A DNA stretch of 64,000 nucleotides from Micromonospora sp. NBC_01813. GTDB taxonomy: Bacteria; Actinomycetota; Actinomycetes; Mycobacteriales; Micromonosporaceae. The notes under the pieces are model-generated. The model saw only the letters and a program-made list of their open reading frames with translations, did no database searches and was not told where the DNA came from. This document shows, piece by piece, positions 60,338-64,000 of the stretch. How positions within the stretch are numbered: position 1 is the first letter of the stretch; each line of letters begins with the position of its first letter. Location of the stretch: contig NZ_CP109067.1 of assembly GCF_035917335.1 (NCBI RefSeq), positions 1,738,501 through 1,802,500 on the forward strand, given 5' to 3'. The position numbers and the translations under genes are program-made.

Positions 60338-60396
60338 CCTGCGGCCAGCCCACGGAGCTGGGCACGTGGGGGCCCTCGCATGCCGCCGGTGCCGTC

Positions 60397-60433
60397 GTCG
60401 CATGCCGGATCAGGTCCTGATCCGGCATGCGAC
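60397..60433. terminator. 37-bp perfect palindrome after the cobalt operon
   Basis: Arms GTCGCATGCCGGATCAGG (60397-60414) and its exact complement (60416-60433) surround a single T. A transcript would fold into a very long stem with a tight loop. It lies 60 bp after the ferredoxin stop, so a terminator is the simplest reading, but there is no T-tract. A 6-bp hairpin (CGGTCG-GCAT-CGACCG) follows near 60443. Confidence 0.6.
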
Positions 60434-60604
60434 GCCCCCGATCGGTCGGCATCGACCGTCATGAACAATCGTCCGGAAGGTGCCGGTCGGGCAAGGTTCG
60501 CCCGGGGATCGGTTGCATGTTTGTGCAACGGCGGCTCCGCGCTCTTCCTTGACCGGCACCGGGATGGTTCGCTTGCCCGGTGACACGGGGGAACGGGAGC
60601 TGAT

Positions 60605-61642
60605 GTGTCCAAGGTCGCTGACGCGCTGCCACAGCTGACCCGTTGGGGCATCTCCCCCGACGCGGATCTGGTGTATCGGGCACTGACCATGTTGGGGGCG
60701 AGGACGGAGGGACAGCTCGCGCATGAACTCGGCCTGGCCCGCAAACGGGTGCACACCGCGCTCGACGAACTCCGCACCCTCTCGGGGGCGGCTCCGACCA
60801 ATGCCGGTGGTGTGTGGCGACACCAGCCGATCGAACAGGTGATCGCCCAGCTACGCCGGCCCCGACGCACGCGGGCCGTCAGCAAGCAGGACATCTGGCG
60901 CCAGCACTTCGCCACCGTCCACGGCATCGAACTGCCCCACTATGACAGCCCGCTGGCGCGCCGTTGGGAGAACCGGGCAGTCACCCGGCAGCGGGTCGCC
61001 CGGCTGGTGGCCGCCGAACGGTACGAGCACCTGGCTATCAACACTGAAGTGATCACTGCGACAGCCTCGGCGGCAGCGATGCCGTTGGACCGCAATCAGT
61101 TGGATCGCGGCGTCAAGGTACGGGTGCTCTACCGGCCACCCGTCGACGGCGACCTCAGCACCGACCACGCAGCCCTCGCTGCGGACACCGACCGTTCGCG
61201 GACGCTGATCGAGCCACCGATCAAGCTCCAGGTGTACGACCGTCGAATCGCGCTGTTCCCGGTCGACCCATTGAACTTCGAGGCGGGCTACGTCGAATCC
61301 GCCGATTCAACGGCCGTACAGCAGTTGTGTGCATTGTTTGAAGAACTCTGGGCGCAGGCCCACCGGCCAAGACACGAAGGGAGACCCACAATTACACTCA
61401 CCCCGCGCGAGCAGGCGTTGGTTGCCCTGCTTGCTGCTGGGCACACCGACGCATCGGCTGCCGAGGAGCTTCGGTTGAGCCTGCGCACCGTGGCATACAC
61501 GATCCGCAATCTGATGGATCGCCTCGGCGTGGAGAATCGCTTCCAGTTGGCGGTCCTGCTTGGCGCCTCCGGCACCGCGCCACTGCCGCCCACCTACCAG
61601 CCGGATCAACCCAACCAGCGCACCGAGGAGAATGAACAATGA
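60605..61642 (+). CDS. TrmB/LuxR hybrid transcriptional regulator
   Basis: 345 residues from a GTG with GGGAG upstream. The N-terminal winged helix (LVYRALTMLGARTEGQLAHEL, then RVHTALDELR) resembles TrmB. A middle domain (about residues 110-245) contains PLD-like strands (VKVRVLYRPPVDG, LQVYDRRIALFPVDP). The C-terminus is a LuxR helix-turn-helix (LTPREQALVALLAAGHTDAS, then LRLSLRTVAYTIRNLMDRLG). Such hybrids are common in actinomycetes, often beside a single target cluster. Its stop overlaps the first secreted-protein gene (ATGA), so that pair is the probable target. Confidence 0.85.
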   Translation: MSKVADALPQLTRWGISPDADLVYRALTMLGARTEGQLAHELGLARKRVHTALDELRTLSGAAPTNAGGVWRHQPIEQVIAQLRRPRRTRAVSKQDIWRQHFATVHGIELPHYDSPLARRWENRAVTRQRVARLVAAERYEHLAINTEVITATASAAAMPLDRNQLDRGVKVRVLYRPPVDGDLSTDHAALAADTDRSRTLIEPPIKLQVYDRRIALFPVDPLNFEAGYVESADSTAVQQLCALFEELWAQAHRPRHEGRPTITLTPREQALVALLAAGHTDASAAEELRLSLRTVAYTIRNLMDRLGVENRFQLAVLLGASGTAPLPPTYQPDQPNQRTEENEQ

Positions 61643-62271
61643 ACCGATCTGCTCGGCGAACCGCCGTCTGCTTGGCCACCGCACTTGTCACGACTGTCAT
61701 CGGGATCTGGATGACCACCGGGATCGGCGGTGCTTCGACCGGCCCGGCCCCGATAGGCTCACTGGTTCCGGTCACCAGCCCGCCGATCGAGCCGGTGCCG
61801 ATGCCGAGTAGCAACACCATCCAGTGGATCACCGCTCCGTGTGCGAACGCCGAGTTCGGCAGTGTGGAACACGAACCACAGCTTGGTCTGTTCATCAGCG
61901 CGTCTGCCAGAACCTGTCCCCCATACAAGCCCGGAAGCGCCGTCGCGGTAGCCACCTACCGGGACGATCGAGCGTACAGCTTCGTCCACGGCAGCAACTT
62001 GGTCCCGTACTCGCCGACCGGCGACACCTCGATGCGGATTCTGATCCGCGCGGCAACGCTACGGCCAGGGCAGGGGGTCTGCCTGATTCGTACGGATGCG
62101 GTCCGGCTGGTCTGCGGCAGAACCATCGCAGGGCCGGAATCGGCGATGACCGTGGAGCCCATTCCGGTGGACGACCCATTGGTCGACCGACCGGTCATCT
62201 TCGACGGCAACTCACGACCAGAGGGCGAGCCGATGCCGGGGTGCGCCACGTGTGTCGAGGCACCGTCTTGA
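61639..62271 (+). CDS. Unrecognised secreted six-cysteine protein, paralogue A
   Basis: 210 residues. The ATG overlaps the regulator stop, with GAGGAG upstream. A signal peptide or anchor covers residues about 8-30; a Pro/Ser-rich spacer follows. Mature cysteines are at 68, 93, 148, 159, 202 and 205, aligning with those of the next protein. Shared motifs: PCANAEF, AVAVATYR, GVC and RLVCGR, MTVEPIPVDDPLV with VIFDG, and GCATC at the end. No known family. Three disulfides are likely, and an extracellular role is inferred. Confidence 0.78.
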   Translation: MNRSARRTAVCLATALVTTVIGIWMTTGIGGASTGPAPIGSLVPVTSPPIEPVPMPSSNTIQWITAPCANAEFGSVEHEPQLGLFISASARTCPPYKPGSAVAVATYRDDRAYSFVHGSNLVPYSPTGDTSMRILIRAATLRPGQGVCLIRTDAVRLVCGRTIAGPESAMTVEPIPVDDPLVDRPVIFDGNSRPEGEPMPGCATCVEAPS

Positions 62272-62301
62272 ACGGGATCAACAGTACGCAAGGAGTGACG
62301 C

Positions 62302-62904
62302 ATGCTACTTCAGCTCCGTAATTCGGCGCTCTGTCTGGTTGCGGCCATGGTCGTCGCCACATCGGCAGTCGCGATCGGGTCCACTGCGTCCGCCGCCGCT
62401 CCGAAGTCGGGAGCGCCAGAAGCGGCAATCGCCGGGACCAAGGATCCAGCGCCGCCGCCACACATAGACCCGTGGATCCCATCACTGTGCGCCACGGCCG
62501 AGTTCACCTCAGCGTACTCCGATCCGCCACGGGACCTGGTAGCCATCGGGACGATAACACGCTGTCAGCAGTATATCCCGGACAGCAAGTTCGCCGTGGC
62601 GGTCTACCGTCCCGGGCAGGTCCCAGTGGTGTATACCTCGCAACTACAGCGCTACCAGGCCGACCAGCTTACTTTGAGGTTGGACTTCTTCGTCGGCAAT
62701 GAGCCGGTGTCCGACGGTGTCGGGGTGTGTGCCTTGTCCACCCGCCACCATCGGGTGGGTTGTGCCCGGTTGAGTCACGGTCCGGATGGCGCAATTGTCC
62801 TCGAACCGATTCCGGTCGACCATCCGCTGGTGCAGATTGCAGTCACCGTGATCTATGACGGGACCCAGGATCTGCCTGACCCCGGTTGCGCCCACTGCGT
62901 GTGA
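62302..62904 (+). CDS. Unrecognised secreted six-cysteine protein, paralogue B
   Basis: 200 residues; AAGGAG 7 bases before the ATG. The signal peptide (LLQLRNSALCLVAAMVVATS) ends near ASAAA. Mature cysteines at 63, 88, 143, 154, 196 and 199 match paralogue A in spacing (25, 55, 11, 42 and 3 residues versus 25, 55, 11, 43 and 3). Shared motifs: LCATAEF, FAVAVYR, GVC and RVGCAR, LEPIPVDHPLV with VIYDG, and GCAHC. It is 30 bp after paralogue A, so the two form an operon with the hybrid regulator. Function unknown. Confidence 0.78.
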   Translation: MLLQLRNSALCLVAAMVVATSAVAIGSTASAAAPKSGAPEAAIAGTKDPAPPPHIDPWIPSLCATAEFTSAYSDPPRDLVAIGTITRCQQYIPDSKFAVAVYRPGQVPVVYTSQLQRYQADQLTLRLDFFVGNEPVSDGVGVCALSTRHHRVGCARLSHGPDGAIVLEPIPVDHPLVQIAVTVIYDGTQDLPDPGCAHCV

Positions 62905-62910
62905 CGACCC

Positions 62911-62951
62911 GCTGATGGGCTGGGCCATCTTCGACGGTCCAGCCCGTCAGC
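62911..62951. terminator. Bidirectional terminator hairpin before the AdhE gene end
   Basis: GCTGATGGGCTGG (62911-62923) pairs with CCAGCCCGTCAGC (62939-62951): 13 bp with one mismatch, which is a wobble pair on one strand. The loop is 15 nt. It fills the 54-bp gap between convergent genes and can serve both. Confidence 0.7.
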
Positions 62952-62958
62952 GTGGCGA

Positions 62959-64000
62959 TCAGCTCGGCCGGGTACCCACCGTGGCGGTGCCGTAGTAGGC
63001 GGTTCGCATGATCTCCTGCATGTCGTCGAGCATCGGCATCCGTGGGTTGGCCGGCGCACACTGGTCCTCGTACGCGTTGATCGCCTGCTGCGGCAGGCTG
63101 GTCAGGAACGACGCCTCGTCGACCCCGACCGCCTGGAACGACGGCTCGATGCCGACCGCGTCACGCAGCCGTTCGACGGCGGCGGCGTACGACTCGACGC
63201 CCTCCTCGGGGGTGGCCGCCGGCAGGCCGAGGAGCTGGGCGATCTCCTGGAAGCGTTCCGGCGCCCGGTAGTGCTCGTACTTCGGCCAGCCGGACAGCTT
63301 GCCCGGCCGGGCCCCGTTGTAGCGGATCACGTGCGGCATCAGGATCGCGTTGGTCCGGCCGTGGGCGATGTGGAACGTCGCCCCGAGGGTGTGCGACATG
63401 GCGTGCACGATGCCGAGGAAGGCGTTGCCGAACGCCATCCCGGCGATGGTCCCGGCGTTGTGCATCTTCTCCCGGGCCTCGGGGTCGGCGGCACCGTCGC
63501 GCACCGCCCGCTCCAGGTAGGCGAAGATCAGCCGGATCGCCTGCAGGGCGAGCCCATCGGTGTAGTCGTTGGCGTACACCGACACGTACGACTCGGTGGC
63601 GTGGGTCAGCGCATCGAAACCACTGTCGGCGGTGACCACGGCCGGCAGGTCGGCGGCGAGCACCGGGTCGATGATCGCCACGTTCGGGGTGAGCGCGTAG
63701 TCGGCCAGTGGATACTTCTTGCCGGTCGCCGTGTCGGTGATCACCGCGAACGGGGTGACCTCGGCGCCGGTGCCCGACGTGGTCGGGATGCAGACAAGTT
63801 TGGCCAGCTCACCCGGGGCAGGGAAGGTGAACGCCCGCTTGCGGATGTCGAAGAACTTCTCCCGCATGTCGGCGAAGACCACCCCGGGGTGTTCGTAGCG
63901 CAGCCACATGACCTTCGCCGCGTCCATCACCGACCCGCCACCGAGGGCGATGATGGTGTCCGGCCGGAAGTGGCGCATCTGCTCGGCCCCGGCGTCGACG
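62959..64000 (-). CDS. adhE: Iron-containing alcohol dehydrogenase domain, probably the C-terminus of AdhE; partial
   Basis: At least 347 residues, continuing past the right edge. TIIALGGGSVMDAAKVMWLRYE is the nucleotide-binding part. The iron site includes DSGFDALTHATESYVS, GMAFGNAFLGIVHAMSHTLG and HIAHGRTNAILMPHVI, with the metal histidines. The ending YEDQCAPANPRMPMLDDMQEI is characteristic of bifunctional acetaldehyde-CoA/alcohol dehydrogenases, so an aldehyde dehydrogenase half probably lies outside the window. It reduces acetaldehyde to ethanol during oxygen limitation. A free-standing alcohol dehydrogenase is less likely. Confidence 0.85.
   Translation of the reverse strand, partial: VDAGAEQMRHFRPDTIIALGGGSVMDAAKVMWLRYEHPGVVFADMREKFFDIRKRAFTFPAPGELAKLVCIPTTSGTGAEVTPFAVITDTATGKKYPLADYALTPNVAIIDPVLAADLPAVVTADSGFDALTHATESYVSVYANDYTDGLALQAIRLIFAYLERAVRDGAADPEAREKMHNAGTIAGMAFGNAFLGIVHAMSHTLGATFHIAHGRTNAILMPHVIRYNGARPGKLSGWPKYEHYRAPERFQEIAQLLGLPAATPEEGVESYAAAVERLRDAVGIEPSFQAVGVDEASFLTSLPQQAINAYEDQCAPANPRMPMLDDMQEIMRTAYYGTATVGTRPS

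What the first reader, a model, noticed from the sequence alone, without database searches (positions are those of the whole stretch)
60605..62904. Regulator plus two secreted six-cysteine paralogues: a possible undescribed system
A TrmB/LuxR hybrid regulator overlaps (ATGA) the first of two adjacent secreted proteins. The two paralogues diverge strongly but keep six cysteines with near-identical spacing (25/55/11/43/3 versus 25/55/11/42/3) and shared EPIPVD and GCAxC motifs. I recognise no family. The region follows a 37-bp palindrome and ends at a convergent terminator, so it is a self-contained cassette. Possible roles include an extracellular binding protein pair, a toxin/immunity pair or a signalling factor.
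Basis: partly seen in the sequence, partly recalled or inferred. Interest (0 to 1): 0.72.

Follow-up and report, generated by a model that had tools for sequence, protein, structure and literature searches.

The report
Regulator-controlled family of secreted disulfide proteins
Soil actinobacteria carry a small gene cassette in which a DNA-binding switch sits beside one or two probably exported, cysteine-rich proteins of an unnamed family, and a shared DNA tag in front of most of these cassettes suggests that the switch controls them; what the exported proteins do is still unknown.

The parts
60396..60434 (.).
   Evidence: (z -6.3), 65 and 131: a hairpin stays at this place in sister species L056, L058 and L060 but with different sequence
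60513..60528 (.). proposed R operator, TTGCATGTTTGTGCAA (palindrome TTGC-N8-GCAA), 76 nt before the R start codon
60605..61642 (+). R: one-component regulator, TrmB-type N-terminal and middle domains plus C-terminal GerE/LuxR domain
60635..60823 (+). R residues 11-73, winged helix-turn-helix of TrmB type
   Evidence: (TrmBL2 aligned from residue 4; 1sfx 13-97)
60953..61375 (+). R residues 117-257, phospholipase-D-like domain, probably a sensor; the position of the catalytic His of the HKD motif (recalled) is Pro205
61388..61579 (+). R residues 262-325, GerE/LuxR DNA-binding domain
61639..62271 (+). A: six-cysteine protein, probably secreted (hydrophobic leader, proline-rich linker, beta-sandwich, CxxC tail)
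61840..62253 (+). A residues 68-205, the conserved six-cysteine domain
62302..62904 (+). B: tandem paralogue of A, starts 30 nt after A's stop
62488..62898 (+). B residues 63-199, the conserved six-cysteine domain
62905..62958 (.). strong hairpin between B and the convergent gene (stop at 62959), probable bidirectional terminator
   Evidence: -41.7 kcal/mol, z -6.2

Best explanation
An autoregulated operon for exported proteins. R is a cytoplasmic one-component regulator: a TrmB-type winged helix and a phospholipase-D-like domain without the catalytic His, which probably senses a small intracellular ligand, followed by a GerE DNA-binding domain. R (inferred) binds the 16-bp palindrome TTGC-N8-GCAA about 80 bp before the first gene of the operon and sets expression of itself and of the secreted protein(s), translationally coupled by the four-base overlap. 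The secreted protein (inferred from its leader) goes out by the Sec route and folds into an Ig/FnIII-like beta-sandwich, probably pinned by local disulfides (C1-C2 and C3-C4 across hairpins, C5-C6 as a CxxC tail). Showing no conserved catalytic set, it most likely works by binding an extracellular target (a polymer, a surface or a foreign enzyme). A and B are two specialised copies from a duplication. Shown: genes, domain make-up of R, linkage, conserved site. Predicted by model: fold class. Inferred: R binds that site, ligand sensing, secretion, disulfide pairing, binding role. Whether R activates or represses is open.
For: Linkage: 80 of 107 family places have R upstream on the same strand within 1 kb, 10 have it downstream on the same strand (two of them 1.5 kb away) and 1 on the opposite strand; 5 of the other 16 proved to have R or an R fragment adjacent. 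Operator: 63 of 72 distinct units with a family gene carry it before the first gene, against 4 of 475 other genes called in 40 of the 132 loci. It sits before the family gene when that gene comes first (8 of 9) and before 7 of 11 family genes without R. Own genome: 11 sites in 7.63 Mb, one of them here; the R paralogue has a one-mismatch copy. Fold. R architecture. Columns kept in 85% or more of 36 rows are the start M, W, the six C, one R, and D, P and V of the DPLV stretch, which argues against an enzyme.
Against: No binding, expression or secretion data. The operator matrix was trained on R upstreams, so part of the 63 of 72 is in-sample; the cleaner tests are the S-first and S-only units. 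9 of 72 units lack a site above threshold, among them 5 of 12 S-only units. R-like proteins of other families of the class have neither the secreted gene nor the site (13 of 17 such places fetched), so R's architecture alone does not imply the system. 46 of 126 R places have no family gene within 3 kb, and 8 of 27 R-only units lack the site. No -35 box was enriched after the site. The structural matches are generic, so 'binding protein' is an inference from absence of catalytic residues.
Confidence: 0.6

Rival explanations
1. A and B are a toxin and its immunity protein (or two bacteriocins).
For: Small, probably exported cysteine-rich proteins in adjacent genes. Some other sites of the same palindrome lie before RHS/pretoxin-type proteins.
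Against: A and B share one cysteine frame and 34% identity. Two adjacent family genes occur in 4 of 72 distinct units. The tandem pairs L039 and L180 are sisters in the tree (support 100/92 and 99/77), and A and B lie in one genus clade with single copies. No immunity-like neighbour stood out in a crude clustering of 40 loci.
Confidence: 0.07
2. The secreted protein is an extracellular signal whose processed product is sensed by R (a quorum-type loop).
For: Regulator and product share an operon and an operator; GerE domains occur in quorum regulators.
Against: R's N-terminal and middle parts are TrmB/PLD-like, not a quorum ligand domain. No processing protease or importer stood out in the crude neighbour clustering. 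The product is modelled as a folded beta-sandwich. Family genes without R nearby exist.
Confidence: 0.12
3. A and B are structural proteins of the spore, sporangium or hyphal surface, and R is a developmental regulator.
For: The system is concentrated in Micromonosporaceae, many of which form sporangia or complex mycelia (recalled). Beta-sandwich with no catalytic set.
Against: Patchy distribution, 60 of 354 genomes, which a core structural part would not show. No sorting or anchor signal was noticed by eye in the listed proteins (not tested by a tool).
Confidence: 0.15
4. R regulates something else and the secreted genes only hitch-hike beside it.
For: 46 of 126 R places lack the family gene within 3 kb.
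Against: Seven of 11 family genes without R nearby still carry the site directly upstream, and in S-first units the site is before S (8 of 9).
Confidence: 0.05

Closest known systems
TrmB family regulators (Pfam PF01978; TrmBL2, PDB 5box; TrmB, PDB 2f5t and 3qph)
   Different: R carries an extra C-terminal GerE domain; the window's own TrmB match is below Pfam's cut-off (13.9 against 25.6 bits)
LuxR/GerE DNA-binding regulators (Pfam PF00196; GerE, PDB 1fse)
   Different: The N-terminal and middle parts align to TrmB/PLD structures, not to a receiver or autoinducer domain
Ig/FnIII-like beta-sandwich domains (e.g. of GH3 beta-glucosidases, PDB 5fjj; RsgI4 sensor domain, PDB 7cg1)
   Different: 3-11% identity in the listed rows; no Foldseek hit better than E 0.013 in PDB; the six-cysteine frame with CxxC tail is the mark of this family
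Secreted proteinaceous enzyme inhibitors of actinomycetes (recalled, not compared by any search)
   Same: Small, exported, disulfide-stabilised, non-enzymatic, beta-rich
   Different: No convincing match to a Pfam family; membership not tested further

Membership tests
TrmB family regulator (R) | N-terminal winged helix of TrmB type | tested here: met
   11 of 20 R proteins match PF01978 at E at most 0.01, best 9.7e-9; the window R alone only 0.049, under cut-off; model aligns to TrmBL2 from residue 4
TrmB family regulator (R) | phospholipase-D-like middle domain without catalysis | tested here: met
TrmB family regulator (R) | sugar-controlled regulation | not testable with these tools
   needs ligand assays
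LuxR/GerE regulator (R) | C-terminal GerE helix-turn-helix | tested here: met
LuxR quorum-sensing receptor (R) | N-terminal autoinducer-binding domain | tested here: inconclusive
   N-terminal and middle parts align to TrmBL2/PLD structures; the quorum receptors in the list align only over residues 259-327; a family missing from that list is not excluded
Any described protein family (A, B) | match to a curated model or solved sequence | tested here: not met
   Pfam: 5 families, one member each of 33, best E 0.027; NCBIfam: 2 families, one member each, best 0.013; PHROGs: none of 33; PDB sequences: best 0.53
Ig/FnIII-like beta-sandwich (A) | fold match well above background | tested here: inconclusive
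Enzyme (A, B) | conserved catalytic residues | tested here: not met
   columns at 75% or more in the 36-row alignment: M1, W, G, L, Y, six C, R, D, P, L, V
Toxin/immunity pair (A, B) | two dissimilar genes that always travel together | tested here: not met
   paralogues with one cysteine frame; two adjacent family genes in 4 of 72 units
Exported protein (A, B) | N-terminal signal peptide | tested here: inconclusive
   positively charged start plus hydrophobic stretch in the listed gene models, except L057 (interrupted locus) and L198 (disturbed frame); start choice used that feature, no dedicated predictor was available

The most novel reading that the evidence does not exclude
R heads a regulon of exported, possibly competition-related proteins. 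In this genus the same palindrome stands before two operons of giant, probably exported LamG/RHS proteins (one with pretoxin-HINT), with the site kept at the matching place in sister species although its inner eight bases differ, so the six-cysteine proteins would be a soluble arm of a co-regulated surface or contact-competition programme in Micromonosporaceae.
Probability: 0.22. Interest if true: 0.72.

Novelty: new variant of a known kind. Interest (0 to 1): 0.52.

Why it matters
It turns two orphan secreted proteins into a family with a modelled fold class, a partner regulator and a candidate operator. That makes function testable: the operator predicts regulon members, the regulator gives a handle to switch the system on, and the six-cysteine frame defines what to purify. 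TrmB-type sensors fused to a GerE domain seem little described: in five paper searches the rows listed to me (36 in all, of up to 115 hits per search) showed no title or abstract start on this architecture or family.

Tried and rejected
Sequence search of the secreted protein in GTDB contigs from one protein: 45 pattern stretches, no relative. Alignments A1 and A3 had no stretch conserved enough for a contig scan, so R was used as bait. Plasmids and phages: no match to A. Wider taxonomy: order search 9 of 397 genomes, three of them outside the family. Of those three, G403 is a real member, without R or site in the 8 kb fetched; G383 and G394 I take for chance matches (E 3.7e-4 and 5.4e-5, partial matches at the start of the profile). 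Class search (E at most 1e-5): 1 of 256, the own genome.

Idea that R is an activator because a TTGAC -35 box follows the site: not borne out, 7 of 92 against 4.3 in shuffles. Idea that the 37-bp palindrome is an operator: rejected, its sequence is not kept while a hairpin is. Viral structure library: best E 0.003, unconvincing. For the beta-sandwich, families absent from the list are not excluded.

Rows dropped before counts: one search left out units with fewer than 120 bases upstream and repeated sequences, and loci L209-L214; its control genes come from 40 of the 132 loci and from a crude gene caller. One search counts include loci held twice (from two collections). R places are an undercount, as five candidates per genome were scored. 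The 107 places include pieces: the two of G308 are one split gene. Gene models L048, L060 and L070 were left out of the overlap count because their R models overlap S or are interrupted. The neighbour clustering is insensitive: it grouped only 14 loci for the family itself.

Full report
Observation. The three genes are present as described: R 60605-61642, A 61639-62271 and B 62302-62904 on the + strand, R and A overlapping by ATGA. A and B are 34% identical (E 5e-28) and share six cysteines with start-to-start spacings 25/55/11/43/3 and 25/55/11/42/3, plus a further cysteine at residue 11 inside the hydrophobic leader. The inverted repeat at 60396-60434 is 19+1+19 nt and perfect; the hairpin after B folds at -41.7 kcal/mol, z -6.2.

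Family. Neither A nor B matches Pfam or NCBIfam even at E 10. With 33 members, only single-member chance-level matches appear (Pfam best 0.027; NCBIfam best 0.013; PHROGs none); a 36-member profile found nothing better than 0.53 among PDB sequences. BLAST with A found relatives in 29 of 354 genomes of the family. A profile of 36 members found 107 places in 60 of 354 genomes and 16 of 44 genera. The host family is Micromonosporaceae, judged from contigs shared with named records (for example the 9,607,004-base Phytohabitans flavus chromosome). Outside it, order search: 9 of 397 genomes, of which G403 is the only convincing outsider; class search: 1 of 256. All six cysteines are kept in 36 of 36 rows and in 32 of 33 rows of a second, partly overlapping alignment. 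Some loci of the Actinoplanes group encode two-domain versions with twelve cysteines (five gene models). The own genome holds a third member beside a second R.

Linkage. R relatives (E at most 1e-40) occur at 126 places in 74 of 354 genomes. Of 107 family places, 80 have R upstream on the same strand (gap under 1 kb), 10 have R downstream on the same strand, 1 has it on the other strand, and 16 have none within 3 kb. Of those 16, five were later seen to have R or an R fragment beside them: L057 and L269, L270, L271, L272. So at least 96 of 107 are linked. 46 of 126 R places have no family gene within 3 kb. A crude clustering of called genes in 40 loci grouped R in 25 loci and the family in 14; the next cluster spans 9 loci (a long ORF I did not identify) and the others 5 or fewer, among them a cobalt-transporter-like gene (name recalled) shared by four loci of the window's genus and L050 of another genus. 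In 13 of 22 R-S gene-model pairs the start codon overlaps the R stop by four bases, 8 of them ATGA, the others GTGA or TTGA (models, bases; three further models left out).

Operator. A palindrome TTGC-N8-GCAA lies upstream of R in the window at 60513-60528 and in many relatives. In 118 loci (1.56 Mb, some held twice) there are 77 sites, 67 of them within 400 bp upstream of an R or family gene; five Markov shuffles gave 1 to 9 sites in all. A matrix from 44 sites was then applied. Of 114 distinct units in 132 loci, 92 have a site before the first gene; of the 72 with a family gene, 63 do (R-S 34 of 37, R-S-S 5 of 5 of which one is a split gene, small GerE-R-S 6 of 6, S-R 8 of 9, S alone 7 of 12, small GerE-S 2 of 2, R-R-S 1 of 1); R alone 19 of 27. 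Other genes called in 40 of these loci: 4 of 475. The cleaner tests are units outside the training set: when S comes first the site moves to S, and 7 of 11 S genes with no R nearby carry it. In the own genome the pattern occurs 11 times in 7.63 Mb against 48 for the reversed control pattern, once here; the second R has a one-mismatch copy. Sister species G309, G307 and G308 keep the site. In G304 no perfect site was found at the cassette and R is incomplete, which fits decay. The large palindrome at 60396-60434 is different: in L056, L058 and L060 a hairpin with 15 to 18 nt arms stays at the same place with another sequence, as expected of a terminator. No -35-like TTGAC is enriched after the site, 7 of 92 against 4.3, so activation or repression stays open.

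Verdict. A conserved regulator-secreted protein module with its own DNA site, which I found described nowhere in the listings seen. The regulatory half is well supported by comparative evidence; the biochemical job of the secreted protein is inferred. Paper searches (listings only, no paper opened) showed nothing on this system; the library is partial.

Noticed in passing
own genome G000: L240 (site 87-102) and L241 (site 128-143); sister loci L304, L302, L303: Two of the ten other TTGC-N8-GCAA sites of the own genome stand about 60-115 bp (by start codon chosen) before genes or operons of giant, probably exported proteins (RHS repeats, LamG, PT-HINT, Stv). G000 has at least six RHS frames; chance of two is about 7e-7 for 150 bp and six genes, but the category was chosen after the fact. 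The first site recurs before the matching gene in G309 (L304), the second in G307 (L302) and at the matching place in G304 (L303, gene after it unclear), with different inner bases.
   Followed up: partly
L301 2027-2042 (G307): A consensus-like site (TTGCGAGATCATGCAA) lies about 170 bp before a 108-aa probably exported protein with no Pfam match.
   Followed up: no
L164, L165, L171, L173, L179, L183, L184, L187, L189-L191, L193-L196, L284: A stand-alone GerE ORF (about 65-95 aa aligned) resembling R's C-terminal end sits shortly before R (before S in L284); the site is then before this small gene in 7 of 9 gR, 6 of 6 gRS and 2 of 2 gS units.
   Followed up: partly
L057 (G304), L060 (G308): In two sister species the R frame is incomplete, and in L060 the secreted gene is split: the cassette seems to be decaying there.
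   Followed up: no
window 60580-60620: The window reads GTGACACGGGGGAACG where sister species start R with GTGACACGGGGAACG; one extra G shifts that start out of frame, so R starts at GTG 60605 instead.
   Followed up: no
L152 5999-7408: In Actinocrispum wychmicini R overlaps a gene that looks like a BTAD/AfsR-type regulator (name recalled) instead of a secreted protein, with the palindrome upstream of R.
   Followed up: no
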